Assembly: GCA_006503475.1 (NCBI GenBank)
Contig: RSEH01000155.1
Coordinates: forward strand, 49,954-113,953
Length of the DNA stretch: 64,000 nucleotides
Direction of reading: 5' to 3'
From: Stentor roeselii
Lineage: Eukaryota; Ciliophora; Heterotrichea; Heterotrichida; Stentoridae
The first letter of the stretch is position 1; each line of letters starts with the position of its first letter. The notes under the pieces are model-generated. The model was not told the origin of the DNA, searched no databases, and saw only the letters and a program-made list of their open reading frames with translations. This document shows positions 19,829 through 64,000 of this stretch, one piece after another. The position numbers and the translations under genes were made by a program.

Positions 19829-19993
19829 AAAAATTGAATATATTATTTGGCTTGATATCTTTATTGATCATTTCTTTGTTGTACTATGAAATTATCATAT
19901 TATCATATTTTATTTTGTTAAAATTAGTTATAAACTATTTAAATTAATACAGGTATATTTAGGCTGGTCCAAAATCTAAAAGAATCCTTTTTC
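19829..19993 (+). repeat. Left copy of a long inverted repeat
   Basis: This segment matches the reverse complement of 63835-64000. The first 77 bases are identical, and by eye there are seven substitutions and one indel over about 166 bp. It ends inside at AAAATCTAAAAGAATCCTTTTTC, after which similarity stops. The outer limit cannot be seen because the right copy reaches the window end; the gene-like 3' flank of the Rab gene suggests it starts not before about 19800. Confidence 0.93.
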
Positions 19994-20858
19994 AAGATAA
20001 AGGTGCATGGATTACAAAGAGATCCATTATTACAGACCGAAAATAGTGAAGATTCTACTGATTTAAGTATTTATCATAAGATAAGTAAAATTGTGTATAT
20101 TCACCTAAATAATCTATGGTGTATTGTGGTGTGTTAGGTCATGATGAAGGTTTGGTCATTTCAAGTATCGAAAATACCAAGTTATTTCTGGAGTATTGAG
20201 TCTAGTCAATAAAAAAAAAATAAAAATGGTATTTTTTTTTCTTTGTATGAGTTGACTTCAACGACAAAATTTTTTTAAAAGCGTAATTTAATGATTACTT
20301 AAACCTCTTTATGAAATTAATAAATTTATGAATTGGGGCTGCTCTAGATATTAATATTCAACTTTATTCAATCATTCAATATATTAACGAAGAATCCCAT
20401 CAATTAATATATAAAGTGAAATAATTGATTTTTGTTCTATTAGCATATATACAACTTTATAATATCCCAAGTTTTCAATAAAACATCGCAATCTCAATAC
20501 TTAAAGGTTTTTATACAAATATTTTTTTCAAAATCAATTTTGATGATTACACAAATCAGAGGCTGAATGAATTTGGATATTTTAATTGAGTTTAAATAAT
20601 ATACTATTTTTTATCTTAGAAAGATTATATGACTCGATTTAGGATATAATTTATGCTTAGTAATCAAGATATTAATAATCTAATATAATTTCAATACATT
20701 TCAAGATTAAAATAAAAAAAATGTAAGAATCATATACAATAGCTAAAATAAGTGCATAAAATAAGTATATATATTATTCTAGCCATGCTTTAAGTTTTAT
20801 CATAAAAAGAATCTTAAAAAAAATATAGACATATTGGATTTTATTTAAATTGTAATAA
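19994..20858. other. AT-rich 5' flank of the first giant gene
   Basis: No convincing gene is seen. The region has poly-A and poly-T tracts and ends in GTAATAAATG, the usual start context. It is about 865 bp long, against 280 bp for the corresponding interval before the second giant gene. Confidence 0.5.
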
Positions 20859-23800
20859 ATGAGACGATTTGATAATAAAAAACTTTGGCAGCAAGGTCAA
20901 GAAAAAATAAATAGCAATAAAGAAAAATTATATAGACTAAATGAAGAACAAAGTAAAGAAAAAATATATTTAGGAAACCAAATAGAAAAAGAAGAAGAAT
21001 TCCAAGAATATATTCATTATAAAGAAAAAAACCAACTGAACCAACAAGGCTATTATAAAGATGTTTCTTGCGAAAAGCAAAACCCTCAAGTTCCTTATCT
21101 ATCGGGAGTAGCGGACTCTCTGAATTTAAAAAAAAGTTCGCAAACGAGCTCTAAAATTAAATCAGATAATTTAAAAGATCAAAAAGTGGAGCTATTGCCA
21201 TTATCACTTGGCTCAATCATACCGATTAGATCAAATCAATTAAGTTCTAACCCAATTCAAAACCAAATTGATGTTAAACCTAAAAACCTGAGTGAATCAA
21301 ATACTGATCAAACATTATTAAATACAATTAATCTAGCTGATTTCAAAGAAAAATATCATAAAATTTTGTTTTGTGCTAAACACTCATCATACTATAATAT
21401 AATTTTCTATTATAGACAAGTAATCGAGTTTTGGGCTCAAGATGTTTTCGAGTTCACAGATTACCTTTAACTATATTATTTGATGTTTATCACGAATCAG
21501 CTATGGAAGAATGTAAAATCGATGATTATTTTATTTATGCTATAAATCATAAAATCGTTGAAAGAGAATCAAAATATTCAATAGATGCAATTTATTTTCA
21601 TGAATACTATAATCAATATGAAAGGGTTTTTCTACAAAAGTTTATATATCGAGAAAGGAAAGAGCATCGAAAAATTAACCAAGATAATGAAATCAGTTTT
21701 ATTTTTGACATAAATTTTGATAATATACACTTAAACCATACAATACTTCCAAATAATCTTACTTCATTCATTTGCTTCTCAAAATATCTTTTGAAAATCG
21801 ATAGAATTGATAAAATGAATTATTTATTAAATAGCTTCAAGAAAATATATATACCACCAAATGATATATATAGCCAATATGAAGAAAAAAATAAAATATT
21901 TAATCTAATCAAATTTCTTTACGCTGATGAATTTTCGATGACAAATCATATTACTCAAATACTCGATTTACTATCATTCATATCAAATAAAAAGGCTGAG
22001 ATATCACATATAGAGATTATTATTATCTTATTAAAGATAATAGATAAAAATTTGCAAGATATTAAGATTGATAAATCAAATTCTGACATTATTTTAAATC
22101 TTATGCTAAATGAAATTGATCAATCAGATACTGAATATTGGTTCAGCATTCTAACTCATATTGATAACAGAGATGACATAATTTTTCCTTTAATAAAATT
22201 AATGAATAAAGAAAAACCTTTAATAGGATTGATTAATAAAGAAAAATCTTCAAGTCTCTATAAAAAATTTAAAATTCTATTTTTATTAAAGACAAGTAAA
22301 CTTGATTTAAAACATGCAAATAAAATTTTATCATTAAATTTAGATTTGGAGGATAAACTTCAGATCCTAGAGCGTATCTTCGATGAAAATGAAAAAAAAT
22401 TAAATAAAAATGAAGGTTATCCAGATAGAATACTAGGAATTTCCAATCCTCATGGAAAACTATTATCTGAAGAAAATATTGGATTAAAAAATACAATAGA
22501 AGGTTTCCAATCAATATGTAAAACCGAAGAAAATTTAGAAAATAAAGATTCCCAAATTGAAATAATTTCTCTATCAAAAAGTATCATTTCGAAAGCATTT
22601 ACTTGTTATTATAGCCTTGATAAATTCTGTCATTATGTCAATAGTGTCTATAAACTTGAGAATAATATTTTTAAAAGTTTCATCTATCGAAAATACTTTA
22701 GAACACATTTTAAAGCTTTAGTAAACACAATTATGTATTTTCATGAATTAATTCAATTGGCAATTATTATTAACTTAAAGATCGATGAATTAATGAAGGA
22801 TTATAATTTGGAGATAATTATAAATAAGCTAAAAGAGAGATTTGAGGAAAGAATTTTATATAAAATTCTGAAGATAAGTTCAGCTAAGATACTTGAGATT
22901 AAAAAACATGATTTCGAAAAAATCCAATTAAAATATCCTTTGGAAGCTTTAGAAATTTTTGAGGATGAGATTCAATCTATTGAAGAAATTTATTCAAAAG
23001 AAGAATTAATGATATGGGCTCTGCATCTTTACTTCAATAAAATAAAAAATATATCAATCAAAGAATTTTATAATAATTTGGATAATATAAAAACCGAAGG
23101 AATTTCAGAAAGATTTTGTATTATGTACTTTGAATACAAAATTAATATCAATCAAGGTTTTAAGGGATTAATTGAAATAAAAAATCTGATAAACACAGTA
23201 AAAGGGAGATATTCCAAAAGCTTAAAATTACTTTTTGAGCAATTTTCCCAAGGTTACAGCTCTGAGGATTATAGAAAATTTATACTCAAATCTCCAGATA
23301 AATCCTCAAAATGGTTTTTTATACTAGCAAACCATAAAATTTTATACAAAATAAATCAGGAACTCTTGACAGCTATTCATCAAACAATAATAAAAATTTA
23401 CCATGATATTCAAAATCAAACTCTTTCTGTAGAAGAAGCTACTTCTATTATTCATCATGATGAAATTTCCAGAAAAGAGTTCATCAAATATTTAACTCTT
23501 GCATTATTGATAGATTTTAACAAGGTATTAGAAGACTATAGAGATAAGGAAAAATATAAAGAAGAAATTGAACAACATATATATGCTCTTACTGTTAAAT
23601 TTGAAGCCATTGAATATGAAAAACATCAACTAAACTCCTTTTTCTGTAATATTTTAGAAAAATACTGCGAAAACTATGATTCTGAAAATAAACAACTTTG
23701 GGAAAAATATAAAAATGAATATTCAAGCGGAATATTAAAATTCATGACTCCTGGTGAAAAAATCAGTAATCTTAAAGAAATTGCCCTCCAAGTTATCCAA

Positions 23801-26800
23801 GTGAGATCCTCAAAAGTCTTCATGAAATGTTTTTTTAAGCCAAAGTTGATTAAAAAAACATATCCACTCGAAGACCTAACATCAATTCTTAAAACCTCCT
23901 ATGACGAAATGAAAGTCTATTTATCCTCAACCTTTTCAAACCTTAACAAAACACGAGTTGTCGAACTAAGGCCAATCCTTTCGTCAATAGCCCACGCAGA
24001 AACAGAGATAACCCACATGAAGAAATTCATTAACATCACTCAAGAACATCAAACATTATTCATCGAGCTTCAAAAATTTCTGGGAATAGAGTCAAGCATG
24101 GGAAAATTCTGCGAATGTGTAAAACTGCAATGCGATTATTTCGAATTTTCCGAAGCGGTCAAAGATGCAGTTCCCAAAAGTATAGAATTCATTGAAAAAT
24201 GCATTAACCAGATCGATTCAATCACTTGCGAAGACTACTTAGAAATCACTAAAAGGACTTATCTATTACTAGTCAAAGATCTAGACGATGAAAAGATCTT
24301 TAATTTCATTAAAATCACTGAAGCCTTCGCTGACTCTTATGAATACCGGGAATTTTGCCTCAAAATCACTGGCGAAGAACTTGAAAACCTGAAAGAATCA
24401 GTAATTGACTTCGAAGATGTCCTGGTAATGACTAAAGACATTATTGACTTCCAAATGATTGTGGGTTTCGTTCAAAAAGTAAACAAAAAAAGAAACTTTA
24501 ATGCGCTTCTAAAAGTTTATGAAGACTACCTCGACCATAAAGACCAGAACTTCTCCCAAAAAGTTGAAATTTCTGTGAAAAAATTTCAGTTAAAAGAACT
24601 TCAACTGCCCTTGAAAGATCAGGCGAAAAGGCTTCAAATAATCCAAATTTACGAAAACTCACGAGTTAAGCTGATTCAAGAACATAACTCAGTCGAGTTC
24701 ATCTTGGAATACGACATGGTGAGAAACAACACCATTGTTAATACCTTTCGTTACAACTCTGAAAGTCTAAGCGATTTAAAAGACCTAGCGGCCTTAATGG
24801 AGAACAATAATGAAAAGGTTGATGAAATGAAAATCATGATTCAGTTCATTGAGTTTGTTAATGTTTTGTTCAGTGTTTTGGATACAATCAATAAATTAAA
24901 GTCACTGGGATATCCCAATATCGTCATTCCTCAAAATTTTATAATTATAAGCGCTGGAAATTTTGAGGAACTGTTGAGGATTTTAGATGAATTCAGTGGA
25001 TATTTGGATAATTGGGAAAAAAGCATCAACTCTGCTTATGAGAGTTCATATTTACTTACTAATTGTCATGGAAATCAGTTTTGGCTACTTGAAAATTACT
25101 TTAGAGGAGAACCTTGTGATCAGTCAAAGGCGCTGACTTTGTTGAAATTCTTGCAGAAAGAAGAAAGAGATCCCTGCTATTATTTTAATCCGAGCTGGTC
25201 AGTTGAGGAAAGACTAAAAGGCTTAGGCACTTATTTAGAAAATCTTGCTAACTGCAGGTCTATATCGATACTCGATTCAAACCTCGAACGAAAATTTGGA
25301 GGATTTATAACCCATGAGAATGGCATGGTGCTTTTCGTGAAGTACTCCAACCTTTTAAAAGGAATTCTTTCAATATTTCTGCTTTCAGGGAACAAGTTTC
25401 CATCATCAAGGCAAATTCTTTATTGTTCGAAAAACACCACATCAGTTGAGGTGAGAAGTTTTGTTTACAGATGCTTCCAAGATACGAGAAAGCGGCTTTA
25501 CATTCTTGTGAATAACGAAAACTTAAGTCCTGAGATTCAAACTGTCTTTTGTTACTATTTCCAGAAACTCATCGACGATGATTTCAATAAAAGTGCATGT
25601 TTTGGACTGTTGTCATTAGAGGACAAAAGCGTCATATATAATTTCTTCAAGTATCATAAATCTCTTAGATTCCAGCAGGTCAAGGATAGAGAGATGAGGA
25701 TTATGGATGATCACTTGGTAAGAAAATTGATCAATAGTATTGACGATAAAACTACTGTCATCACTTCGGCTGAAGCTGGATTTGGAAAAACTTTCAGAGC
25801 TCATTCGCTGGCAAAACAAAGTTCCAAAGAAATAATCGACTACTCCATCTCAGGTGAAATCAATTTAAGTTCAATAGTAAAAGACCTACTCGAGATCAAC
25901 CTAAAAGAAAACAAAATTTTGCTGCTAAACATTGGAGAAAACAACAACATTGGTTTAGTAAATGAGGTGATAATGAACCTCTCAATGTTCCGCACATTGA
26001 GCTCAGACACAGAAGTCTTCATTCTTCCGGACAACCTGACATTTTTTATCGAAGTGGCAAATACTTTCGATAACCTTCTGTATCAGTCCCTGGAATACTT
26101 GCATTACCTCCGCAACGAGCATATTTCCTCCTTCGACCTGGGCAATTTTCAGATACTTGAGATCGACTATAAAGAAATAAACCATGTTTGTAATTACCTG
26201 AAACTTTACAAAGAAGGGAATCTGGACCAAGAAGAAGTAAATTTTCACGAGCCTTCCTCGCAGATAATGCTAAATCAACAAGCAATCGTCTATCACCTCG
26301 AAAGCATAATCAAAGAAACAGGGAAAAAAATTAATAACTTCATACTTCTCAAGATTTTCATTCGAATCCTCAGTAAACTTCTCATCGGCTTCGAGAACTC
26401 GCCCTTTAGTATTTTTATAATTCAAGAAATGAAGATGTTCTTCAGGGAAAACAACATCGAATTTGTCGCTTTCGAGTTCTCGAAAGTAAGGTCTACTATT
26501 TTTAAAGCCCTTTTTGAAACCACTAACGAATTTACCAATGTTTCAGCTCAGAATGTTAAAAGTGAACAGCAAGATGCTTCTTGTGCCAAGATAACTGGAA
26601 ACAAGCAAATTCATGAATTGAACTTTAAGATGAAATCGAACTTTTCTAATCATTTTTTACTTCTTTTCACTGAGGATGGAGGAATTTCTTTTTACTATCG
26701 AGACCTGAATAAAGTGCCTAATGAGATCAAAAGGCTCATTTTTAGTCAGATAAACTTCAAGGAAGATGGAATTCGACTTGAGGGTTTTATAAAAAGTGAA

Positions 26801-29800
26801 AATTATCAGATTGAAGACTTTCAAACATTAACTCATGAGTCGTTTGTTCAAAAGCTCAATGGTTTTCGAAAATTTGTGGATATCCAATCAGGAAATATAA
26901 AGAAAGAAGACCAATCTAAAGAAGAGAAGACCAAAGAAGATAAAGCCAAGAGAGAAGGAAAAAATGAAGAAAAAACTGCGCCTCCGGCGCAGTTGGATGA
27001 GGAAGAAGAGAAGGTCGAAAAGAAGGAGAAAAGAAAATGGTCGAATTACTCAAATTACATGATTATAGCAGATAACTACCTGAAAATGTGCTCTATTTAC
27101 ATCAGGGCACAATTCTTGATCCCAATTATAATCATAGGAGAGACTGGAGTTGGAAAGACTTCATTGTTAAGGTTCTTTGTTAATGAAATCTTAAAAGAAA
27201 TTATTGACATTTTCTATGTTCATGCAGGACTGAGCAAGGCTCAGCTGATTCAACATATTCTACAAATCAATGAAAAAGCTCAGAGCTCTGCAAAACATGT
27301 CTGGATTTTACTTGACGAGTTTAACACCAATGAAAATGTTGGAGTTCTTTGTGAAATTATGATAAATCGTGTTGTGAATCGCATCAAACTCAGTGATAAA
27401 CTAATTTTTGTGGCTGCTTGCAACCAATATAGGCTTCGCTCGTTTAAGATCAAGTTTGATAATAATGTTGGGATTAAGAAAAAACAGAAAAATTTCAGTG
27501 AAACTCATGTGGTTTATCCTCTGCCAGACCGCATCATTCAACACACATGGGAATTCGGATCACTCTCTTTAGAAGATATGAAAAAGTACATAATAAGCAT
27601 GCTAGGAAGAGACTTGCTTTACTACAAAGAAAAATTTTGTGAACTTATAATGCTCGCGCACGAGACAGTAGCCCAAAGCGAAGACATGAGCAGTGTGAGC
27701 CTGCGAGATGTGACTCGTTTCATTCGGCTATTCAAGTGGTTTTTGCTCTCAAAACTAACACGCGAATCACTGGACAAAGGAGTCGAATACGAAGTGCCAA
27801 CAGACTCAAACGAAGTAATTCCTCGTTCCAAGTCACTAGAACTCGAATGCTCAGTATTGGCCTACTGCCACTGCTACTACCTTCGAATCAATTCTGACAT
27901 TGATAGAAGAAAATTCCTTGTAAGCGTTCAGTCCAGAAGCAAAATCTTGAAAGAAAATCAAATCCTTGAAATCCTTGACAGAGAACAAATGGACTACTTG
28001 AATAGAATGAAACTCACAAAAGAAGTCGCTAAGAATAAAGCACTTAAAGAAAATGTCTTCGCCATTATTCCTTGCATACTTGAAAGAATCCCGGTTTTCA
28101 TTTGTGGAAAAACTGGGTGTTCAAAGTCTTTATCAATTTCTCTCGTTTTTTCTAACTTGAAAGGACTAAAGTCTGAAGACCCATATTTTAAGACTCTCCC
28201 TGAATTAATTCAGGTCTATTATCAGGGATCTGAAATTTGCACTTCTGAAGAAATTCAGAAAATTTTTGATAAAGCTAAAAAGTTCTTGTTTAAGGAAAAT
28301 ACTACCTTGCTGCCTGTTATTATTTTTGATGAAATCGGAATTGCGGAAATTTCTGAAAATAATCCTTTGAAGGTTTTGCATAGTTTATTGGAACTGGAAA
28401 ATAATGATGTAGGGTTTGTTGCTATTTCCAATTGGAGACTTGATGCTTCCAAAATGAACAGATTTTTATACATCTCCCGATCAGAACCCAGCATAGAAGA
28501 ACTGATTCTGACAGGGAGCAATATCTTCGAGTCAATAGGTATCTCACACAAAGAAAACAAAGAACTAATCAATTCCCTTGCAATGAGCTACCAGGACTTA
28601 AAAGACTATCTAATCAGGCTAAAGTCACCCGGGCCCACTTTTCTAGACAAAGAAACCGAGTTGAGCATCTACAACAAAGACGTATACGGTTTACGTGATT
28701 ATTACTTCCTGCTTAAAAATATCTGCTTCAAAATGCGAGATAAAAAAGTGACCCAAAAAGAAGATATTTTCATTATAGCGAAAAGATCAATCGAAAGAAA
28801 CTTCGGAGGGTGGATTGATGCTTCTTCTTACATGCTTGAAAGATTCGCTGAACTCTATGAAATGACAAGTTACTTCAGACCTGAAGATGTCACTCCTGCT
28901 AACTCTTTAATCTCTGAAAGCTTCAAAGATAATAATTCAAGGTATCTGATGATTGTTGGGGATAGTGAAGTTACTACTTTTTTACTTGATAGGCAGATTA
29001 AACAAGAAATGAAAAATCATAAACTTATTGTTGGAAGTCTTTTGAAAGATGATATGAGTAGAGATTATGCTTTTAAAAAATTGAGTCTTCTTGTCCGTGA
29101 TATGGAAGCTGGAAATGCTATTACTTTGTGTAACCTTGATAGGATTTATAGCTCGCTTTATGACTTGTTTGATCAGAACTTGTCGGGAACTAGTAGGAAG
29201 TATTGTAGAGTCGCTCTTGGAGCTTTTTTTAATTCAAGATGCTACTTGCATCCTAATTTCAGAGTAGTTATTTTCATGGACAATGACCAAGAAAAAATCT
29301 CGAAACTCGACCCTCCATTCCTAAACAGATTCGAAAAGCACTACTTAACAATCGACGAGTTCCTAACAACAAAACAAAAAAAATCCTCTCAATCAATCCA
29401 AGACTGGGTCTTCAGCATAATCGGTGGAAACCCATTAAAAAACCCAAAAAAAGACAACTTCATCAATTTTTTCCCCTGTTTTTCAGAACAAGCAGTAAAA
29501 CTTCTACTCCTTCACATTACAGAGACAACTAAAGCCGAAATCAAAGTCGAAGACGAAGAATTCCAAAAAGAAGTCGAAAGACGTTGCAAGTCCCAATTGA
29601 TAAAAATTGCTTCAGTCGAAATAAAAATCATTGCCAGTAACTCAGACCTTGAAAAAGCCGAAAAAGATTTCATTAATTCTGAATGGAATCGATTTCACAA
29701 GAAGCAATTTCATGAAATTATCTTTAAACTACTTGAAAATAAGCAAAACTTTAAAAGGTTGATGATTGTGACTTACCAAAACGAACCTTTAACGCGAATC

Positions 29801-32800
29801 TTTGGGGATAATCATGATGACATGGTCATGCAGTACAAACTTATCAGTTTTAAAGCTGAAAAAGACCTGGATAAATCAATTATTGACTTTTTAAAGTCAG
29901 GAAGTCATAAAGTCTTGATATTCAACCTCGAGTACAGTCTTGAGTTCGAACATTTACTTTACCTGAAGGAAAAAATTGATAATTATGAGTGTGACATGGA
30001 AAAAATCTCTGGAAAACACTTTGTCATCATTATTTCTATTCCAAGAAATGATATCTTGCCTAGACCAATTCCCATTTTTTTTAATTGGAAACAAATGATG
30101 ATCGATATGCTTGCTCCCAGGGTTTCGACTGAGACTTTACTGGAAATTAATGATAATTTGTTGAGGATGTCTACGAAAGAACTGATTATCAAAACAAAAA
30201 TCTTTAGTTTAGCAGAAAATATAGTTGAAATGACTGAAAACGCGCTTAATAAGCTCAATCCGAAGATGGATAATAAAGAATATTTGAAGTATAAGTACCA
30301 GATTAAAAGTCACATTAAGAATGAAGCAAAGTTAATTGAATTGTTTGAAAAAACTATTAGTGAATACCTGAAAAACCTTGAAGAAAGCAGCTTTAAAGAC
30401 TGGAAAGTTCAGATTTTCTCTAAAAGTGTCTCTGATCAGTCTAAACATACAAAAAATGCCATCATGCGATGTGTGAGAGAGGAGATTGAATTTTTTTATT
30501 TTCAAATCGTACACTTTTTAGAAAAAAACCAGACTTTTATTAGTTATTTTACTGAATTACCTAAAGAAGAGAGTGGTCTTTTGAAAGAAATCTGGACAAC
30601 AAACTTTGAAAATCATGAAGTGGTAAACAGCCAAGTAAAACTTCAAAATTTCGACTTATCAATCGAAGTAGAAAAGCTCGACTTTCCCCTTCTATTCCCA
30701 TTCATAAAGTTCGAATTTGACGAAATCACTAAAATTTTCACAAAAACAAACGAAGACGATTTGAACTGGGGATTTAAATTAAAGTTATTTTCAGACCTAT
30801 TCGAGAAAGAAAGCATAATAAAAGATTCAATAGACGAGGTGAATAAACATCTCAAACTTCAAGAAATTTACTTAATGGACCTCATCCGTCTTCTCCTCAA
30901 TTCTCAGAATCAAAAAACAGATCTTGACCTTTTAGTCTTCAGTCTTTTAAAGCTCACCTTCGAACATGACCATCAAATCCAGGTGAAAGTCTTTAAAACA
31001 CTTCAAAACTTCTCAAAAGTCCTGTTTTTAATCCAAGCCTTTCAAGTTGTTTCCACTTTTAACAACCTCAACAGCGACTCTCTCTTTAAAGTCTTCGAAA
31101 ACTTTCTTAAAAAACAAGAAGAAAACAATGAAAAAAGACAAAAAATCGAAAATAAACGAAAAGAAAAAGAAGAAAAAGAAGAAAGTGAAGAAAGTGAATT
31201 TGAAGACAGTGAAGAATTCGAAGGTCTTGAACAATTCGATGAAATCAACCAAAAAGCAATGAAACAATTTTTATCATCTTTGAAAGCATTAGGCGACGAC
31301 ATGATTTTAAATTTTTTAGAATCCGAGACATATGTCGAGCCTGCTGAACTTCTTTCAGCGAGTTGCAGTCTTTTGACAATTATTTCATCTTTAAAACTTT
31401 CAAGCATCTCTTTTTCCCATTCAGATTCTTTAGAGTTTTTCCAAAGATTTTTAGAATTTTCAGTATCTGCAGGACTTTCATCGTCGACTGTCGCTCTGAT
31501 CAAATCTCTTCTGTTTAAAGAACAGACTATTGACCTGGCAGGAGCCAAGGACATGGTTTTAGGTTTTGTTGATGAGCAGATCGCTTTGAAAGGAGAGAAA
31601 ATTTCGTTTTTGAGCTTCAAGTTTTTTTATTTGATGTCACTTTCTCTTGACCAAATCGAGACTTATGAGATGATTATTCAGTTAATTGATGAAACTGGAC
31701 TTTGGAAGGTCTCAAGTGAGTTTCTTTCACTTGTTCTTAGTGATATCAAATTTGATGAGTTTTCTAAAAGTTTTGACTTTAAAATAGTGAATCGGGAAAT
31801 GGAAGAACTTTTTGTGTTGCAAGATGTGCAGGAAGTTGAGGTTATAAATCGGGTACTAGAAAAGACTGGGATTCAGAGCAGGTTTGGAATTTTGTTAAAT
31901 GATTTGATGGAGAGGACTATTATTAATCAGACACTTGATGAGAACTTTAATGATGCGTTTGCGTTTCATTCACTTAAATCTGCTACTGAACGGTTTTGGA
32001 AGTTAAGTCAGGCGAATGAGAACAGTCTCCTCCAATTAATCTGTATATCCATAATAAAGCGAAGTCTAAAAATCTACTCAAACAACATAGCAGTCCAAAA
32101 TTCCGACGCAGACCTGAAAGACAACTTCGACGAATTTTTGATGAGTGAAAAGCCTCTGACAGGAACCCTTCAACTATTCAGCTTAAAGCAGATCTGCTCG
32201 AACCTTGAGATGGTCTACAAAGACGTAAATCAATATCTCGGCGCTTACGACCTTCGCTGGGTGGAGTTTTTCGACACAATCGACGAGATTCGTTTAAGTC
32301 ACATGGTTGTCTGTCACAATCAACTCGAAGCTTATTCCAACATCGTGCAAGTGATTCGATTATGTCTGTCATCAGGTAACTCTTTAAAAGCACTAAACAA
32401 TTATTTATCAAATTTTGAATTCATCATGCCCATCGGTACAGCCTTTATTAATGAAGTTTATCCTCAGTTTTACTTTGGAAATACTGATATTCCTGAAACT
32501 TGCTTGGAATGGGTCAAAGGGCAGAAGGCAAGTATTAGAAAAGTTTTTGGAGATGATATGTTTTTATTGCTTTCTAATATTTGTACTAATTTTCATGCCA
32601 AGTCTTGCTTTAGACTTAAGAATATGGCGGAATTTCAAGAGGGAGAGGAGAAGGAGTGTGAAAATAAAACTTTGCATTTGTCGGTTGCTGTTGTTTATCA
32701 GTTTTTAGTTTGCTTGGCTTCCTCGAAAAATAATGAGTCTATTGGAAGATTGTTTTTTGGAAAGGATGGAAAGGTCCTGCCCAATCTCGACAAAATCTTC

Positions 32801-47790: not shown

Positions 47791-49545
47791 TTTGGATTAT
47801 TTGAATGGGGAGGATAGATTTTCTATTGAGGGATTAGGAAGAGTGTTTAATGGGAGAGGAATTTTTATTTGGGTTGATGAGAAGTTAGTAGAAAAGATTT
47901 GGAGACATTATTTAGAAGAATATATATAATTATGATATGGGTCTTTTAATGTCTGAATATTAGATTTGAAAAATGTTAGTTGGTTGTTTAGTATTGGTTA
48001 GAATTCTGCATTTTTCACATGAATGACAATTAAACTTAAGCTCCAAAGATATGCTTCTTAGTATGGATACAACATTTTTGAAACATGCTTGTTTGGGATC
48101 TCTAAAAGTTATTCACTATTATTTGAGTTTCTATCAGCTAATATAAAGATTTTTAAAATAAAAATCAAAAAAATATCCGCTGGATTTTTTTTTAATAATT
48201 TGAGTTTAGAGATAAAAATTTCTATAATCGAAATAATTAACTTCTAATATCACGAAAATTTATTTTTTGAACAAATAGTTAAACACTTGAGTTTTTCACA
48301 TGTGCAGCCTCTCAACAAGAATGATATTAAATGTCTTATCCAGGATTTAAATAAAACAATTAACAAAAACTATAAAAACATGTTAAAAGCTTAAAACTAA
48401 CTTTATAATTATTTATGATTGTTCTTAAATTTTAAAGGCTATTTTTTAGATCGAATTGATCGTGAGTGGTTTGATGAAATTTATGACTCATACACTTTCG
48501 GTTATCTTGATTACTGTTGAAAAACGTTTTGTAAATTATTGTCTAATATTTTATATATTCTATGTGCATTAATAGTTTATTATTAGATATTCCTGATTAA
48601 GACTTTAATAATTTAAGGAAGATCGCTGTGACTAACATACTTTATCAACTTGGTTTTTTAAGAACAATTTTATATAGATAAACAAGAATATAAATATTAT
48701 TCCTGATTATGTTCAACTGTTGATACAAATTGTAGAGATTCTTATTAACGGATTAGTACTATGAAACGAACTAACATATAGAGAAACAGCTAAGACTTTT
48801 TATCAAAATCTCTATCTATTTACATACAATCTAGCGTAAATGAAATCTTTAATTTAACCTAATATTTGATTAATTCCTATTTGAAGAATTCTATTTACCT
48901 CATTTATTAGTTAAGCCTTTAATATTTCACCTTTCTTTATGATTAAGCAATTTCAATTAAGAATCATTTTAAATATAGAAAATTTATTGATAGATTTTCT
49001 GGTTTATCTGCAGGTAAACTCGAGTAGTTGATAATTTAGTTTTGTAGTTTTATAATCAAATCATTACAGAGGTTTTAAAAGTGCTGGATATCGTCAATTG
49101 GAGGGTAATAAATTATAACTCAGAGAGAATCTTTAAAAAAAAGAATAAGATCAAGATTCATGAGATTTAATCTTTGAGGTAGATAGATTTTATATCAAAG
49201 AATAGAGTGTTACAACTACATAAGGGAAACCAGTTTAAGAAATTATGATGAAATTCTAGTAATTCAGAGAATCAATAAAATACTTCTACCATCATTTCTA
49301 AAATAATCATATGATAGCACCATAGATAAGTTAATAAATTTTTAAATAATTAATCCTACGATAATTTTAAAATGTAAGTATATAAAAACTTGGCAATTCC
49401 TACTTCTGGAATTAGTTTAATACTTCATTAAATTTCCTTTCCTCTCAAAAATTTCTGATAAATTTAATAAAATTTGCTAAAGAAATCAATAAATATCTCA
49501 TTTCATAAAAAGCTAACTAACTAATCTCAATTAAATTCTATCAAA
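47791..49545. other. Gene-poor AT-rich spacer
   Basis: No intact gene is seen. It contains short coding-like relics between about 48.25 and 48.84 kb, described separately. The remainder is AT-rich with no repeats that I could align to the matching spacer after the first giant gene. Confidence 0.5.
48248..48836 (+). pseudogene. Possible decayed coding relics (transposase-like HTH fragment)
   Basis: Three open runs in different frames look protein-like: 48248-48391 (YHENLFFEQIVKHL then SFSHVQPLNKNDIKCLIQDL), 48419-48517 (KGYFLDRIDREWFDEIYDS then YTFGYLDYC) and 48678-48836 (IPDYVQLLIQIVEILINGLVL, stop, NELTYRETAKTFYQNLY). The last resembles helix-turn-helix heads of transposases (xLTYREIAKxF). 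Stops and frame changes break them. The evidence is composition and flavour only. Confidence 0.3.
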
Positions 49546-52500: not shown

Positions 52501-55500
52501 AGAGTTTTTGAAAGAGAAGTAGTTTTGGAACTGATTTTTTATATGTTCGTTGGAGTTATGACTTGATAGGTTTTTTATGTAGATTAGGAGACTTCTTTTT
52601 ATTAGGGATAAACAAATCAGCTGGAGAAGACTGTTTTCATTCAAATGGCTTAGCTGCAAAAATCTATCAGTAGCCGGTAAAAGCGTATTAAAAGCAAACC
52701 AATCATTCAAATATTCCTCAAGAGTAAAATTAAAAATACTTCTCTCCATCAAATCATTCAATAAAATTCCAAACCTGCTCTGTATTCCCGTCTTCCTTAA
52801 AACTTTATTAATAACTCTTATTTCTTCATTTTCATGAATTTCAAAAAGTCCTTCCAAATCCTGATTCACAATTTTTAAGTCAAAACATTTAGTAAACTGT
52901 TTAAATTTAATATCCTCTAGCACCAGCATTAAAAAATCACTTGAAACCTTCCAAACTTCAGTCTTATCAATCATTTCAATAATAAGTTCATAAGTTGAAA
53001 CATCATCAATAGACAAGAACATTAAATAAAACATTTTAAACCTTAAAAAAGATTTTTCTTCACTTTTTTTAATAATCTGCTCATCTATTAATGCGATAAC
53101 AGTGTCCTTAGAACCTGACAAATCAAGAGACTTGTTTTTGAAGAAAATAGATTTGAGTGAAAAAAGAGTCGAACATGAAATATTCGCTGATACTGAAAAT
53201 TCAAGAAACTTTTGGAAGAATAATAAAGAGTCCAAATGGGTAAATGAAAATTTACTTGAAGGGTTGAATTTTGAGATAATTGTTAATAGACTGCAACTTG
53301 CTGAAAGTAACTCGGTTGGTTCGGCATTAGTTTTGGATTCTAGAAAATTTGAAAGGAGCTCGTCAATTAAGATTTTTAAGACTTTTTGATATCTTTCTAT
53401 CAGCTTTTGATTGGATTGGTCAAACTCCTGTATGCCTTGAAATTCTTCATTCACTTTAAGTTCCCTAGAATCATTTTCCTCTTTCTCGTCTTGGTCTAGA
53501 GAATGATCATCTTTTTCTTCATTTTTTATAAACTTGCTATTTTCTCTTTCTTTATAATTTTCTTCCTCTTTCTTCAGAAAATCTTCAAAGACTTTAATTA
53601 AATTATTTTGCGTGAATGAGGTAAATTTCTTGACTATATTAAAAATTTGAACCAATAATAAGACTTCAGAGATATTCTTTAAAATCTTAAAAATTTTCAA
53701 ATGAATTAGGTCTTCTTCATTAAAAGTCAATTTAAAAAGAATGAAAACAATTGTATCTAGTTCAATGCTTTTATTTTGAGGTTGAGAAATCATCAGAAGT
53801 CGGATGAAGTCTTGTAAGTAAATCTCTTGTAATTTTGGTAATTTATTGAATTTTTTTAGGAATTCTTTCAAAATACTCTCTTTTTCAAATCGTTTTGAAA
53901 AAGACTGTAAATCCCTGTTGAAGTTGAATTCTTTTGTTTCTGAGAATATTTTCAGAATTTTTTGATATTCCATTATGATAAAAGGGAAAACTAGTGAAAA
54001 GTTCAACTTTTCTATTTGGATAGAAAAATCAATTTCAAGATTTTTTAGGTTGACCACAAAATAATTCTCAAAGTTGTTTTTCCAAACCTCTTTTAAAACA
54101 TCACTCTCATCTTCAGGTAGCTCCGTAAAGTAACTTAAAAATGTCTGATTTTTTTCTAGAAAGTGCACAATTAAAAGGTATATATTTTCATAGTGAAACC
54201 CCAAAAATCGAGAAATAGCACTTTTTATATCTTTTGAATTTTTAGCTACTTTTCTAGAGAAAATCTGTATTCTCCAATCCTTAAATTCGCTTTCATGAAT
54301 TTCTTTCAGATATCCTTCAATAATCCTTTTGAAATATAGAATCAAATTTTCTTCATTTCTAACATATTGTCTAATCATTTGCTTATAATTCAAGTACTCC
54401 TTGAAATCCATCTGAAATTTAAGTTTACAGAAAATTTTTTCAGTCATCCTATCAATATTTTCCCCAAAATTGAAAAATATCTCATCAATTATCATATCTT
54501 TGGTTGACTTTGCTAATAAATCATCATTAATCTCTTGAATAGAAAAATTTCTCTTACAATTCAGCTCGTCAAGCATGATTTGTTGCCAATTGAAAAAAAT
54601 TGGAACAGGTTTAGTCAACGGTTCATTTCTAGGAATGGAAATAATGATAACAAAAGATTTTCTATTTGAATATTCTGAATCATATAAAAAATTATCAATT
54701 GTATCAGTTAAAAAAAGCAAATTATTCGATTCCAAGTTAAAATCAACACAAAATATTAAGACTTTATGATGAGAGATAAGGAAATCATCAATTGACTTGC
54801 AGAGTTCTTTGCTTGTTTTAAAACTGGCTAACTTGTAATTAACAATAAAATCATCATTTTCATCTCCAAATATGCAGAATAAAGGCTCAGTTTGATAAGT
54901 TAAAATCATTAGTTTAATTGTCCTTTCTGTAATGATTAACTTGAAGATGATTTCATGGAATTGCTTGCTGTGGGATCGATTCCAATTAGATATGATGAAG
55001 TCTCGGTCAGATTTTTCAATGTGTGAGCTCCAGGCGATTATTTTTAAGTTGATTGGACTTATTTTGATTAATATCGACTTGCATATCTTTTCGACTTCTT
55101 CATTGTCGTAGTTGGATGTTAATTTTTCTAATTCTGTTATGTGGATTATTAGAAGTTTCACTGCTTGTTCGGAAAAACACGGGAAAAAATGTAGAAAATT
55201 TTCTTTGTTTTTCAGTTTTAATTGACTTGGTCCTAATATGCTGAAGACCCAGTCTTGGATTGATCTTGAAGCATCGAGTTGATTGGAAGTCAAAAAATCG
55301 TCTATATTAAAGTAATGCTTTTCGAATCTGCTTAGCAATGAAGGGTGAAGATTGAAAATTTTTTCTGGGTTGTTGTCTACTGAAAGTACTACTCGAAAAT
55401 CTTGATTAACAAAACATCGCTGGTTCGAAAACATTCCACGAGAGACTCCACAATACTTCCTAACACTTCTATAAAATTTCTTATCAAATAATGTATAAAG

Positions 55501-58500
55501 AGAACTATAAATACAATCAAGATTACTCAAAAGTGTAATACTCCCAGTTTCCATGAAATTTACAATAGAACTCAATTTTGTAAAAGCATAATCATCTTGA
55601 CTAATGTCATCTTTTAAAAGACTTCCACGTATAAACATATAATTTTTATTTTCTTTTTTAATCAGTTTATCTATGAATGATGTTGAATAATCACTTTCCC
55701 CAACAATCATAAGAAACCTTGAGTTTGAATTCTTTAAACTTTGTGTAATTAGAGATGATATTGGACTGGAATGATTTGTGCTAAAATATTCCTTCATAGA
55801 ATAATGTTCAGAGAATCTTTCAATCATATAAAAAGAAGCACCTTGCCATCCTCCTATATTTATTTCAATACATATTTTCGTGATAAAGAAAATATCTTCT
55901 TTTACGGTATAATAAAGATCTTTCATTTTACAGCATATATTGTTTAGCAGTGAAAAAAAGTCTCGTATACCATAAACTTCTTTATTGTAAATAGTTTCTG
56001 GGTATCGGAGGTCTTCATTGATATTATTTTTATCAAGAGAAGTGGGCTTGCCAAGGTAATTGAGTAAATCTTGGTAACTCTTAACCAGACATTTGATAAA
56101 CAGTATGTATTCTTCAGATGAGATGTTGTGTATCTTGAAGATTTCCTCAGCTATCTGAATCAAATCTTCAATATTATACTCAACCAAGCATAGCGATAAA
56201 ACTCTGTTCATCTTCGAAGCATCGAGTTTACAATTCGAAGTAGCCACAAACCCCACATCATTATTCTCAATCTCCAAAAAGCAATCAAGTACATTCAAAG
56301 GATCATCCTCTGAAAGCACTGCAAGTTCAACAGAATCAAAAATAACAACTGGCAGTAAAGTCGTATTTTCTCTATAAGAGAATTTTTTGGCTTTTTCAAC
56401 AATTTCTAACATCCCTTTTGAGCCACAATTTTGATAAGTCTGAAAAGGCAAGCGATACAATTCAGGAAGTACTTGAAAATAAGGGTCATCAGATTTATTT
56501 CCTTTACAACTATTCAAGACCAGTTCAATTGATAAAGTCTTAGAATATCCAGATTTTCCACAAATAAAAACAGGGATCCTTTCAAAAATGCAAGGAATTA
56601 CAATAAAAATACATTCTTTTAATGCTCTAGTCTTGATAATATCATTTGGAATTTTTATTTTTCTTAAGAAGTCCATTTGTTCTTTTTCCAAGATTTCAAG
56701 AATTTCCTGCATTTTCAAGAATTTACTTCTGGACTCAATGTTTATTAATAATTTTTTTCTTTCTATATCTGAGCTGATTCTGAGATAGTAACAATGGCAA
56801 AAAGAAAGTACGCCACATTCGAGTTCTAACGATTTTTCTCGAGGAATTATTTTGTTTGAGTATTCAGGAGCTACAAAAGGCTTCCCTGAGTCTAAAGAAT
56901 TACGGGTTTGTTTTGAGATAATAAACCATTTTAATAGTCGAATGAATCTTTTCACATCTCTTAGACTTGTACTGCTTGTGTCTTGGCTTTCGGATAATGT
57001 TAAGTGAGAAATTAAGATAATATCGCAGAAGTCTTCTTTGTAGTAAAGCATCTCTCTTTCTAGAATCCTGTCTATGTACCTTCTTAGATCTTGAGTTGAT
57101 AAGGAGCCATAGTCCCATACATATGGAATTATGTTCTTTGGCAGAGGATAAACAACATAATTTAAATAATTGGTTTCATTATATTTCTTTTGTTGTTTTC
57201 TATACCAAACATATTGATCAGCCTGCATTTTATGAGAAAGCAACCTTAATGGGTTACAAGCGGCAACAAAAATAAGTTTTTCACTGAGAATTTTTTGATT
57301 TACAACGCGATTAACCATGATATCCGAAAGTACTCCAACATTTTCATTAGTATTGAATCCATCTAGTAATACCCAAATACGTGCAGAAGATTTCTCCGCA
57401 TTTTCATTGATCCGTAAAATGTTTTGAATAAGGGAAGCTTTAGTGATCTCAGGATAAACATACACGATTTCAATACTTTCTTTTAAAATCTCCTTAACAA
57501 AGTACCTGATTAAACAAGTTTTACCAACTCCTGTTTCGCTCATAATGACAACTGGGACTAAAGATAAAGCTCTTATATAAACACAGCACATTTTCAAGTA
57601 ATTATCAGTAGTTATCACATAATTCAAGTAAATATCCCATGTTTTCTTTTTATTATCATATTCCTTAACTTTTTCATTTTCAACATCGTAATTTTCGCCT
57701 TTATTTGTTTTGACTAAATTTTTTATTTCCACTGCCTTTGAAAATTCTTGCAACTTCTGAACAAAAGATTCTTGAGACAATGTCCGCAGGTCCTCAACTA
57801 AATAATTTTCATTTTTAATAACATCCGAAATTTGATAAAAGTCTTGTTTAAAGATATTCTGAATAATCATAAGTTTTTTAATATCACTTGGAATTTGACT
57901 AGGGTCACTATAAAGAAAGGTCAATTTTCCATCTTCAGTAAAAAAAAGAAAAAAATTATTTGAAAAGTTATTTTTTTTCTTTATGCCTAAATCAATAAAT
58001 TGCTGTGATTCAGTCATTTTGGACTGAAGAGTATCTTGTTCAATACTCACACTTTGGACTGAGTAAGTTGTTAACTCATAAGAGGTACTAAGAAGAGTTC
58101 TGAAAATAAATGACCTTAAATCACAAAATTCTGAAGATATTGATTCCAAGTTGTTTTCTCTTAAGTTGGCCTTAATTTCTTCTAAGCTCTGGACATTAAA
58201 AGGCGAATTTTCGAAGCCGATTAGAAATTTGCTCAGGGTATCAATGAAAAGACGAAGTAAGATAAAATTTTTTATTTTGTTGCAGGTTGTCTTGATTAAG
58301 TCTTCCAGATGAGAAACTATTTCTTTTTGGTTAAGTTTTTTGAGGGAAAAAGGGTCAAAAAAGTTGATTTCTGTTTTGTGAAGATGACCTTTTTTGTACT
58401 GTTTGAGATAGTTGCATACATGGTTTGTTTTCTTGTAGAAGGTTTTATTTAATTGGATGTTCGACAGGTTAAAGGTTGCAATGTGTTCACATCTAAGGTA

Positions 58501-61500
58501 TTTAAGATAGTTCAGAGATTCATAGAGAAGGTTATTGAAAGTGTTGGCTATTTCAATGAAAATTATTAGATTTTCGGGTATTATAAAGATTTTTGTGTCA
58601 GAGATCAATGTCTTAAATAATGATAGAGTTATAATTAACTCGTTTACTAGTGAATTGTTGTTGTTTACTCCGATGTTTAGGAGCAAAATTTGAGATTCTT
58701 TTAAGTTCATTTGACTTAGTTCTTGTACTATAGTATTTAGGTTGACTTCACCAGATATTGAATAGTTTATCATAGATTTACAGCTCTCTTTTGCCAGCTG
58801 ATGAGCCCTGAAAGTTTTTCCGAATCCGACTTCACTCGAAGTAATAACAATTGTTGTACTATCAATAAAACTTATTATTTTTCTCGTTAGTTGATCATCC
58901 ATGATTCTGCAATCTTTTTTCTTAATCTTAACCAATCTGAGAAATTTATGATACTTAAAAAAATCGTAAATAGAACTTTTATCTTTTAATGACAAAAGAC
59001 CAAATCGATGGTTTTCATTGAAATTGTAATGAATGAGTTTTTGAAAATAGAAACAAAAGACTTTTTGGATTTCATTAGTCAAGTTTTCACTGTTGACTAA
59101 AATATATAGTCTTGATTTTGTATCTTTGAAACATCGATATATAAAACTTCTGATTTCCCATGATGTTGTATTGTTATTGCAGAATAAAATTTGAAATAAA
59201 GAAGGAAAATTGTAACCAGAGAGAAGATAGATTGAAAAGAGTCCTTTTATTAGGCTTGTGTACTTCAGGAATAGAATAGTGTTGTTTTCATGATATATAC
59301 ATGGTTGGATTTTTTCGTTTTTGAATAATTGTGACTTTTTTTTAGGTTTTTTGTTTGGAAGAGAGTCTAAAAAAGTACCTAAACTTTTCAGTTTCTCTTG
59401 AACTGACCAATTAAAATCAAAGTGAAATCCAGTACTTTTATCTACTTTCTTCATGTAATCCAGCAGAGTCCTTGCTATAATCTGATCACAAGGTTCTCCC
59501 TTAAAATAATTTTCAAGTGTCCAAAACTGAAATCCATGTAAAAAAGTAATTAAAAAAGAGCTCTCATATGCTGACTCAACGCTTTTATCCCAGTTATCCA
59601 AGGAAATTTTATAATCATTGACTAAATCTTTAATTTTACCATCTTTTAAATTTATAAAATCTTCAGGAATCTCAACAATATCATAGCCAATAGATTTAAA
59701 TTTCCTTAAAAACTCAATAACATCTAGTAAATCATCGACTAAAGTAACAAACCCATTTAAAATTATCATTTCTTCTGAATCTTTATCTAATAACATCTTA
59801 AGTTTCAAAGCCGTTTGAAATTTCAACTTCCTCAACATTTCAGAACTGACTTTTATGGTCTTTGTTGCAATGTTATTTCTTATTGTTTTAAATTTCAAAT
59901 AAAATTCGACTGAATTATTTCCTTGGATAATCTTGACAAGTGAACTTTTGGTTATTTCATAAATATCATTTCGAATTGATAAACATGCCAAGTGCTCAGC
60001 AAAGTTAAGCTCTTTTAAATCGGGTAATTTTTTTACTGAAATTTCGAGTTTCTGGCAGAATTCAAAGTCGCTTTGGTCAAGGCACTCGCTGAATATTGAT
60101 AGTAGGGTGTTAAAGTTATTATTATTGTTTATTTTTTTTAGGAAATTCACAATTATCTTTAAGTCAAGGATATCTTGGGTGGTTAAAAGAATTTCTTCAA
60201 AGTTGTTGACTGATTCTTCTAATTTTTCAAGATCTTCAGAAGTAAGTTTTAGGCAAAATTCAATGTATTCTAATTGATATTCAAAGGCTTCAGTTACTTT
60301 TATGAAGTTAGAAATCGTTTTTTCATTTGAATTTCCTATAAGAATAGAGCAAGTTTTATTGAAAGTTTCGAAATATTCTTTGCACTTTATTGTTTTAATA
60401 CATTTTATGCACTTTTCTATGAACAAGGCGCTTTTTGATATTGTCAGATTTTTAATATCACTGAAATTGAAAAGTTTTGGAAGTAATAAGACACATTCAC
60501 AGAATTTTTCCATGTTTGAATATTTTCTTATTATTTTGTGGAGCCCAATAAATAATTCTTTCTCTGTTTGACCTATTTTTATAAGATTGCTAATGTTGTC
60601 AAGTTCTGTTTCAGCATAAACTACTGATAACATAATCGACTTTATTTCGATTACAGGAGTTTCAGCAAGATTAGAAAAGGTTTTTATTATAAATGTCTTC
60701 ATCTCTAAAAATGAATCTTTGAGTAAAGCTATTAATCGATCTGTAGAATATTTTTTATCAGGAATCATTTTTGGTTTGAAAAAGCAATTCATGAAAATTT
60801 CTGAAGATTTTATTTTAATTACATCATTTAACTTGTTTTTTAACTCTTCGATTTTTTCATTGAGTTTCAAATCTCTTAAAGGTTTTTTCAAATATTCATT
60901 TTTATATGTTTCCCAAAGTATTTTAAATTCAGAGTCATAGTTTTTGCAGTATTTTTCCATGATATTCGAAAAAAATAAACTAAGTTGAATTTTTTCTGTT
61001 TCTATAGATTTTATTTTTTCTTTAAAGATATTAGTCAAGGTTTCTACTTCCTGATAACATAATTCTTTTTCGTTATTTCCTTTTTCAATGGTTAGAGCTA
61101 AACTTAAGTACTCCTTGAAGGCTTTTGCTTGTTTTTCATCGTGATGAATGATATGAATACCTTCATCTACAGTTAATGAATTATCTTTAATGTTATTGTA
61201 TATCTTAATTAATGTTTTTTGTATAGAATTGAAAAGATCTTCATTTATTTTAGTAGACTTTTGGAATCTGCTGAGAATTATAAACCATTTGGATTTTTTA
61301 CTAGGGGTATAAATAATAGCTTTTCTTTCATCTGAGTTGAAATCTTTTGCAGTGATTTTCTCTAAATATATATCGAACATAAATAATAGAAATTTACTAC
61401 TGCCTGATTTTTCTAATAGTTTAGAAATTTTAGTTATTTCATTAATAAAGTTTTTATTTTTTGAATATTTCATGCAAAATCGTTGTATTATTCCTTCAGT

Positions 61501-63554
61501 TTCAATTTGATCTTGATATTTATAAATTTCGCTTATTTTTTTTGTTATTATTTTTTCTGCATAGAGATCAACAGCATTTTTCATTAACTTTAACTTAACT
61601 TTATTTTCTTCAATAAATTGAATTTCCTTCTCAAATTTCACCAAAGATTCAACTGTTTCATTCTCTAGCGATTTTTTAAACTCCTTCAATTTTTGTTCAA
61701 ATAGTTGCTGACTGTTAAATAATAGCAAACTATAAACTTTCTGATGATCAAACTTTAATTTTAAGTTGCATATTAAATTTTCAATAGTATTATCTTCCAT
61801 AATCTCAGTAATATTTAATTTAACAACAGATGCGAAAAGTTCTAAATCATCAAGACTATTAATTTTATAGCAAAGTTCATCAAAACTTTCTTTAAAATAA
61901 TTTTTTAAAATAAAGTCCTTGAAATCTAAATTTTTAACATCTTTTATAATTTTAACATATCTACAGAAGTCAAACAGAGTTAAGCGATTAAATTCAAAAT
62001 GAAGTGAAATAAGATCTTTAAATTGAGACAATGTAAATTCTAAGCAACTTTTTCTCTTGTAAGAATTTCAGAACTTATTGAGTGTGAAAATGATTCAGCT
62101 ATATTCTCTATAAATATTTTTTCTACTATTTTTAATTTTTCTTCAAATTTTAAAGATAAAGATAAAATTAAACTTGCTTGATGCAAGTTCAGTTTATCAT
62201 TAATCAATAAAAAAAGTATCTTAAAATTTTCGGAAAGCTCATTTATCCTTCCGAAAAAATTGGAATCTTTGACTATTGGCAATAATAAAAATATGAGATT
62301 TTTTCTGTTTTGATAGTGAGTTAGGAATTGAAGCCAAGCTTGTGATCTTCCATATTTTATTTCTTTTATCATCAAATCAATTATTTTTGATGAATTTTCA
62401 GGGTTTTCAAGGGAAATTTGAGCAATTGATTTATTTATCATTGTATTCATCTCTGAAGTTACCATGTGATATAATTTATTGGTCGTTTTTGTAATAAATA
62501 AGGAGAGAAAGTCGAAGATTACTGGTATATAATTTATAGAAATCATGCTATTTTGATGTAATGCATCAATTAAATTAGAAATTACGTTGATATCAACCAT
62601 ATCTCTTTGAATACTTCGAGAAAAATTTGAAGTTTGTTTATAATTCGAAATTAAATTTTTTATATCATTTATGTTTTTCTTCTTGATAAAAAATTTGGCA
62701 AAGTAGATGAGTGAAGTAAGCTCATCAACTGGGTTTATATCATCACATCCAAAATCATCAAATTTCAGATTAAATAAGTATATTTCTTCAGCATTATTTT
62801 TTATATTTCTTTTGTTTAATTCTTTATATATTTTTTCATCTTTGTGATTACTTTGAAAAACTTTTGCATCTATAGAAAAAATTGAATCTGGCAGTTGATA
62901 TTTATGACAAACTAAGTAAATACTGAATCCATCGATTTCATCAATTGGTTTTGCAATCTCATGATAGATATCCTGATGCCAAGTTCGTATTTCTTTGTAT
63001 ATAAATTGAATTTCTCTATTTTTATCTGTTTTCGCACAAAAATAAATTTTAGTTTCCTTTTCATTTTGTATAAATTGTGTTGGATTCGAACTATTTCTCT
63101 TGTTTGAAGAGTCATTTATTACTTCCTCATCATTTTTTTCCAATACTTGAGGACTTTTAACATCTAAATGCATAGATGATAATTCTTGATATTCTTGATT
63201 TTTATTTAATTTTGTTTCTTCGTAATTATCGATTTTTTTTTCATTTTTTAAAGCTTCTGATGAGGTTTTCAATTGAAATGATACATTTGAAAGAGTATCA
63301 TCCTCAATTGATTCTGAATTATTTATCTGAAAGTCATCTTTTATGATACTCTGAGTAAACATTGACTGATCTGAATGCTGAGGTGAAATAATACATTCAT
63401 ATAACTTTTTAATCATTTTAAATTTTGCTTTTTGTGCTTTTATTATTGATGAGTCAATAATATGATCATCTTCTATTGTTTTTAAATGGTTTTCTTGATG
63501 CATAGCTCTAGATTTGTTCTGCTTCCTTGATTTTATCTTAAGGATATCACACAT
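49546..63554 (-). CDS. Giant RNF213 (mysterin)-like multi-AAA+ protein, copy 2, lacking Walker B glutamates
   Basis: Two frames (63554-62040 and 62031-49546) join into about 4,660 aa if a 26-nt insert (62032-62057) is left out. It aligns with copy 1 along its length, strongly in the AAA region (for example both have GFGKTFRAH, YSISGE, LIGFENSPF, SETGVGKT versus GETGVGKT, LSRFEKHYF versus LNRFEKHYL). Joined numbering: AAA2-like SEVGFGKT at 1565; AAA3 P-loop SETGVGKT at 1997, with Walker B LLDGFNTNENVG, where the catalytic Glu is Gly2057; AAA4 P-loop GKSGYSKT at 2324, with Walker B VIFDSVELAV, where Glu is Ser2399. The RZ-position cluster (3928-3957) keeps C, C, H, C, C but has lost the Cys after HIF. 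Together these suggest ATP binding without hydrolysis. The gene is AT-rich throughout, unlike the later two thirds of copy 1. The start TATATAAATG is in the usual context. Confidence 0.88.
62032..62062 (-). other. 26-nt frame-breaking insert between TTACA direct repeats
   Basis: On the sense strand TTACA occurs at 62062-62058 and 62036-62032. Removing 26 nt joins GAA ATT CTT ACA to TTG TCT CAA, giving EILTLSQFKDLISLHFEF. This aligns with EIISLSKSIISKAFTCYY of copy 1. The segment carries an in-frame TAG and has no GT..AG borders. It looks like a second IES-like insert. Confidence 0.62.
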
Positions 63555-63834
63555 TTATATATAGGAATAATTAATGATATTAAATTATTGTTAAATTGTA
63601 GATCTTAATTTTAGGATAAAATGTAGACACTTATTTTTAATATTATTTCTTTTGAGTTTTTTTGGAAATTATTAATTTATACAATTTTTTGATAAAATTT
63701 GACTGAAATAAACCTATCTATAACATGATTATAGTCAATTTTTCAATAATTATAAAAAATTGAATGCAAGCTAATTTTGTTTAATATTTCCGATTTATTT
63801 TAAATCAGTTCAATCTTTGGTCTATTTTCATTTC

Positions 63835-64000
63835 GAAAAAGGATTCTTTTAGATTTTGGATCAGCCTAAAATATACCTGGATTAATTTAAAAATTTGGTA
63901 ACTAATTTTAACAAAATAAAATTTGATAATATGATAATTTCATAGTACAACAAAGAAATGATCAATAAAGATATCAAGCCAAATAATATATTCAATTTTT
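63835..64000 (-). repeat. Right copy of the long inverted repeat (cut by the window end)
   Basis: It is the reverse complement of 19829-19993 with about eight differences. Its inner end is 280 bp upstream of the second giant gene's ATG. The repeat continues to the last base of the window, so its full length is unknown. Confidence 0.93.

What the first reader, a model, noticed from the sequence alone, without database searches (positions are those of the whole stretch)
19829..64000. A 44-kb segment bounded by a long, nearly identical inverted repeat
Positions 19829-19993 and 63835-64000 are inverted copies about 95% identical by eye, far more alike than the giant genes they flank. The segment carries one RNF213-like giant gene at each end pointing inward, gene-poor spacers, and a normal gene block in the middle. 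It could be a large terminal-inverted-repeat element that captured genes, a palindromic duplication whose ends are kept alike by gene conversion, or a shared upstream control element of an RNF213-like family. None of these has, to my knowledge, been described for a heterotrich.
Basis: partly seen in the sequence, partly recalled or inferred. Interest (0 to 1): 0.85.

Follow-up and report, generated by a model that had tools for sequence, protein, structure and literature searches.

The report
Inverted gene pair at contig end
The "44-kb element with inverted ends" is most likely an old inverted pair of giant RNF213-like genes in a ciliate, sharing a short, unusually similar stretch of DNA upstream, and its apparent outer edge is simply where the assembled sequence stops.

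Summary
The inverted repeat is real: 174 columns, 93.7% identical, found at two places in the 44.4-Mb assembly. Its outer edge is not biological: window base 64000 is the last base of contig C65. The last 77 bases match the internal copy exactly, then differences begin. Exactly 77 is this assembly's graph overlap; at least 7 of 19 non-telomeric contig ends searched show it. The outer 77 bases are thus identical by construction; the inner 97 columns (about 89%) are the unbiased measure. No second outer end or target-site duplication can be inspected.

The arms are two diverged RNF213-like giant genes, tail to tail (51-53% protein identity, near-saturated four-fold sites), in a family of 17 long open frames on 15 contigs. 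Of 10 ORFs scanned between them, 4 match ordinary families (kinase, PP2C, C2, GPCR-like), 6 nothing, none a mobile-element family. The closest other paralogue lacks the block, so it is not a family-wide control element.

Best reading: an old inverted duplication whose upstream block was later copied or gene-converted between the copies. A pair-specific conserved promoter is the main rival. A mobile element is unlikely.

The parts
19829..20001 (+). Left copy of the inverted block; between the Ras/Rab-type GTPase gene and giant gene L. Its outer edge (19829) is set by the contig end, not by sequence.
63827..64000 (-). Right copy of the block, cut by the end of contig C65; the outer 77 bp are exactly identical to 19829-19905.
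63924..64000 (-). 77-bp exact terminal overlap, read as a k=77 assembly-graph vertex
   Evidence: same length at 6 other contig ends
20859..35206 (+). Giant RNF213-like gene L: first exon 20859-21470 (inferred), main open frame 21416-35206 (4596 codons)
49546..63554 (-). Giant RNF213-like gene R: first exon 63554-62040 (inferred), main open frame 62193-49546 (4215 codons with TGA as Trp; 4173 by the standard code, because of three TGA near its 5' end)
23306..35074 (+). Left arm that aligns, in three pieces, at 65-71% DNA identity with the right arm 61293-49606
49606..61293 (-). Right arm, the inverted counterpart of 23306-35074
35207..49545 (.). Middle block (protein kinase 37588-38478 -, GPCR-like 42853-43785 -, PP2C 44961-45656 +, C2 domain 45917-46882 +; six further scanned ORFs without a Pfam match)
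19063..19725 (+). Ras-superfamily GTPase gene immediately outside the left block (Rab-like by its C-terminal Cys-Cys, recalled)

Best explanation
Shown: the 44-kb segment is an inverted pair of paralogous RNF213-like genes (L and R, tail to tail) around a gene block whose recognisable members are ordinary. A block of at least 174 bp, apparently noncoding, lies upstream of both genes. The contig ends exactly 77 identical bases into a part shared with the left copy, the overlap length seen at other contig ends of this assembly. Inferred: one gene arose from the other by an old local inverted duplication. Later the short upstream block was copied between the two inverted copies (gene conversion or a small local inverted re-duplication), so it is far younger than the genes. 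The tract probably runs on outward beyond the contig end. No mobile element is needed.
For: Contig end equals window end, with no telomere there. Exactly 77 bp of terminal identity here and at 6 more of 19 genome-searched ends. L and R group together with 100/99 support in a 10-row tree. L/R four-fold sites are 48% identical against 30% expected from composition, i.e. near saturation, whereas the block is 88.7% in its inner part and 100% in its outer part. Similarity inward of the block drops sharply at 20001/63827. The block has two places genome-wide and no similarity in the 3.2-kb stretch around the start of the C310 paralogue. The C65 locus has seen other local events: a stretch at C65:49040-49362 matches part of R's first exon at 76%.
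Against: The inner 97 columns already differ by about 11%, so any copying is not very recent there. The outer perfect identity is expected from how the contig ended and is not independent support. Strong constraint on a regulatory element would give the same picture. The inner edge is not perfectly clean: a looser alignment extends to about 20103 (79.5% over 283 columns), and 13 of 300 shuffles reach the score of 20002-20150, so weak residual similarity there is borderline. No contig was found that shows where the right copy leaves the shared path, so outward extension is inferred only.
Confidence: 0.6

Rival explanations
1. The block is a pair-specific upstream regulatory element kept alike by purifying selection since the L/R duplication.
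For: It lies upstream of both genes (about 860 bp from L's and 270 bp from R's inferred first exon), looks noncoding, has a fairly sharp inner edge and a 32-bp core with one difference.
Against: Not found upstream of the closest other paralogue or elsewhere in the assembly. No RNA fold beyond shuffles (6 of 6 z-scores between 0.10 and 1.07, i.e. slightly less stable than shuffles) and no Rfam family at gathering threshold in the window; a permissive scan of 19700-20200 gave one weak hit outside the block, snoZ165 at 20108-20197, 19.7 bits against a cut-off of 90.
Confidence: 0.25
2. Invertible segment or fold-back chromosome: in the polyploid somatic nucleus the left flank is joined to either arm because the inverted blocks recombine.
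For: The shared 77-mer at the right end leads only into C65's own left flank: the block was found nowhere else, and no exit contig with an exact 77-mer was found in window 1-20200.
Against: A collapsed short repeat with lost or filtered small contigs gives the same pattern; C118 and C150 starts show the same internal pattern. The DNA search skips simple repeats and very common words. No reads are available.
Confidence: 0.07
3. A large terminal-inverted-repeat mobile element that captured host genes.
For: Inverted near-identical ends about 44 kb apart.
Against: The outer edge is the contig end. Only two places with the repeat. No transposase, integrase or polymerase family among the 10 ORFs scanned. 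The inner arms are diverged paralogous genes.
Confidence: 0.03
4. The right block is an assembly misjoin at a contig tip.
For: It sits at the very end of a graph contig.
Against: Its inner 97 columns are a distinct sequence seen nowhere else in the assembly, with 10 substitutions and 1 indel, so it is not a plain copy of the left block.
Confidence: 0.05

Closest known systems
RNF213 (giant AAA+ E3 ligase family) and its heterotrich paralogues (best hit SteCoe_6230, Stentor coeruleus, 46% over the searched region)
   Same: AAA core aligned over about 800-900 residues to solved RNF213 (best E 2e-75 for L, 6e-54 for R). 17 long frames in this genome and six Blepharisma stoltei proteins among the 120 listed hits.
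   Different: No RZ-type or RING domain found by Pfam in the main open frames of L or R; R has lost both Walker B glutamates.
Inverted paralogue pairs with local gene conversion (known in many genomes; recalled)
   Same: Old inverted pair with a short tract more alike than its surroundings.
   Different: Only the upstream block is alike; the outer end is unseen.
Contig ends of de Bruijn assemblies overlapping by k (SPAdes; [quoted passage not shown]
   Same: Exact terminal identity of fixed length, 77 bp, at several ends.
   Different: Here the shared 77-mer lies inside the same contig, inverted.

Membership tests
Terminal-inverted-repeat mobile element | Two defined outer ends | tested here: inconclusive
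   The right outer end is the contig end; 77-bp graph overlap
Terminal-inverted-repeat mobile element | Target-site duplication | not testable with these tools
   No sequence beyond window 64000
Terminal-inverted-repeat mobile element | Mobility gene inside | tested here: not met
   Pfam scan of 10 of 12 ORFs of 200 codons or more in 36697-47796: 4 host-type domains, 6 without a match. Two long ORFs and all smaller ones not scanned.
Terminal-inverted-repeat mobile element | Dispersed copies in the genome | tested here: not met
   Two places only
RNF213 family | RNF213-type AAA+ core | tested here: met
RNF213 family | RING and RZ finger | tested here: not met
   No such Pfam hit in the main frames of L and R; no RING-like spacing found by a simple pattern
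Family-wide upstream control element | Block upstream of other family members | tested here: not met
   Two places genome-wide; the C310 start region has no similarity. Upstream stretches of the other 14 long family members were covered only by the genome-wide searches.
Gene conversion tract | Identity far above neutral divergence | tested here: met
   88.7% (inner 97 columns) against 48% at four-fold sites
Gene conversion tract | Sharp edges on both sides | tested here: inconclusive
   Inner edge sharp but with borderline residual similarity; the outer edge is unseen
Gene conversion tract | Shared variants between copies within strains or reads | not testable with these tools
   No reads or strains held

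The most novel reading that the evidence does not exclude
The inverted blocks recombine in the polyploid somatic nucleus, so the 44-kb segment exists in both orientations, or as a fold-back chromosome, and swaps which RNF213-like gene, the intact one or the ATPase-degenerate one, sits beside the GTPase-side flank.
Probability: 0.07. Interest if true: 0.6.

Novelty: new member of a known kind. Interest (0 to 1): 0.25.

Why it matters
Mainly as a caution. Near-identical inverted ends at a contig end can be produced by the graph overlap of the assembler, and the percentage identity measured there is then biased upward. What remains is a heterotrich-type RNF213-like gene pair in which one copy keeps and the other has lost the ATPase motifs, sharing one unusually similar upstream block. 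That is a modest but testable case of local exchange between inverted paralogues.

Tried and rejected
TIR element, dispersed repeat, family-wide control element, structured RNA, tRNA and coding exon were each tested and dropped. I first thought that L was closer to C310 (68% identity) than to R (56%). The tree groups L with R, with a long R branch (0.87 against 0.17; midpoint root; 5 of the 17 long family members of this genome and 5 database proteins), so that idea was dropped. I looked for a contig that leaves the shared path in the left flank: no exact 77-mer match is listed for window 1-20200, nor for C65:39960-49953 (where 7 of 8 candidates were scored and the self-match was not listed, so that call is weak). 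C65:1-39959 was not searched. The organism was not identified: the rRNA search did not complete. Genetic code: L's main frame holds 0 TGA and 26 TGG when TGA is allowed, and 3 of 22 long standard-code frames of C65 end in TGA, which suggests the standard code; but 35 TGA stand against 167 TGG in frames delimited by TAA and TAG alone, so this is not settled.

Contig-end count: 20 ends of other contigs were fetched. Two were telomeric (C153, C85 starts) and dropped. The other 18 plus C65's end were searched genome-wide (one search scored only 40 of 59 candidates). Of these 19, at least 7 have an exact terminal run of exactly 77: C65 end, C118, C47, C470, C197, C73 and C150 starts. The other 12 did not show it: C11 start runs 124, C23 start 58, C118 end 49; C5, C9 and the C302 end have exact stretches of 64, 68 and 44 that begin inside the end; for C302 start, C390 and C205 I did not fetch or test all partners; C13, C56 end and C453 had no partner of their own listed. 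C65's own start was compared only with fetched pieces (run 21).

Full report
What is there. The window is C65:49954-113953 of a 44.4-Mb, 522-contig assembly, and window base 64000 is the last base of C65. Copies of (CCCTAACA)n lie at contig ends here (for example C5, C9, C11 and C13; 547 matches to three units in all, the first places listed), and this is the telomere repeat reported for the heterotrich Blepharisma stoltei (passages of PMC9942806). C65 has no such repeat at its right end nor at its left end. A 174-column inverted match joins 19829-20001 with 64000-63827 at 93.7%. The block was found at these two places only: BLAST with 165 bp gave 2 places, and a 32-base core allowing 3 mismatches gave 2, with 0 for the reversed control.

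The outer edge is an assembly edge. Counting from the last base, exactly 77 bases are identical, then 10 substitutions and one indel follow in the inner 97 columns. I searched 18 other non-telomeric contig ends genome-wide. Six of them have an exact terminal duplicate of exactly 77 bases: C47 start with C266 end, C470 start with C276 end, C197 start with C468 start, C73 start with C62 end, and C118 and C150 starts with internal sites of C229 and C218. With C65's end this is 7 of 19, a lower bound because one search scored 40 of 59 candidates and not every partner was fetched. One end has a longer exact run (C11, 124) and others shorter or none. I read this as a k=77 de Bruijn graph; 77 as a SPAdes default is recalled, and that SPAdes creates overlapping sequences at contig ends is said in a passage of PMC5481147. 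Two things follow. First, 19829 and 64000 are not element ends. Second, the identity of the outer 77 bases is a condition of the contig having ended there, so only the inner 97 columns (86 of 97 identical, 88.7%) measure divergence.

The arms. Outside the block, 23306-35074 aligns with 61293-49606 at 65-71% DNA identity. This is the body of two giant genes with main open frames of 4596 and 4215 codons (R's is 4173 by the standard code), 51-53% identical in protein. Both match solved RNF213 over its AAA core. The family has 17 open frames of 3700 codons or more on 15 contigs here, and shorter pieces. In a tree of 10 rows L and R group together (100/99), with C310 next under a midpoint root, and R's branch is five times L's. 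Four-fold degenerate sites of L and R are 48% identical (278 of 582) against 30% expected from composition, so neutral sequence of this age should be nearly unrecognisable, as the spacers are (134 of 300 and 35 of 300 shuffles reach the scores of two spacer pairs). The block is therefore either constrained or younger than the genes.

Which of the two. All three forward frames of both copies, and the three reverse frames of the left copy, have stops inside the block (reverse frames of the right copy not examined). One forward frame is open for 38 codons from the cut edge in both copies, but all four of its changed codons change the amino acid, so it does not look coding. There is no Rfam match at gathering threshold and no fold beyond shuffles. 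Nothing similar stands in the 3.2 kb around the start of C310's gene (one paralogue; the others are covered only by the genome-wide searches). Inward of the block, 25-column windows fall from 80-100% to 52-64% of a gapped alignment; 13 of 300 shuffles reach the score of the next stretch, and a looser alignment runs on to about 20103, so the inner edge is sharp but perhaps not perfectly clean. I favour copying between the inverted copies, because the similarity is confined to this locus and to nothing else found in the family. Pair-specific constraint on a promoter explains the same facts and is kept at 0.25. The locus has seen other local events: a stretch just left of the window, C65:49040-49362, matches part of R's first exon at 76% in the same orientation as R.

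Element reading. Between the arms lie a protein kinase, a GPCR-like protein, a PP2C phosphatase and a C2 protein; 6 other scanned ORFs match nothing (10 of 12 ORFs of 200 codons or more). No mobility family was found there. With two copies, no visible second outer end and diverged arms, a mobile element is not supported.

Limits. C65:1-39959 was not searched for exits of a collapsed repeat, and the DNA search skips simple repeats and very common words. Exon joins are inferred. Literature: the searches 'RNF213 + ciliate' (10 of 15 papers listed), 'Stentor + macronuclear genome + gene conversion' (2 listed) and 'inverted repeat + gene conversion + ciliate + paralog + macronuclear' (5 listed) gave no title or shown abstract that describes such a pair. 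I saw listings only, so this says little.

Noticed in passing
window 57346-57369 and 56323-56346 (-): Gene R has lost the Walker B glutamate in both RNF213-type AAA modules (DE to DG and DE to DS), while all 9 other rows compared keep DE; its main frame stays open over more than 4100 codons and its branch is long. It looks like an ATPase-degenerate paralogue.
   Followed up: partly
C65:49040-49362 (just left of window base 1): A stretch that matches part of R's first exon (340 columns, 76% DNA identity), same orientation as R; perhaps a relic.
   Followed up: partly
window 18738-19036: Tandem copies of a TTAACACCC-type unit resembling this genome's telomere repeat lie inside the contig, just before the GTPase gene.
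   Followed up: no
window 12239-12367: Tandem array of a 9-10 base unit, TTTTTGAGGA/TTTTTAAGA type.
   Followed up: no
   Followed up: no
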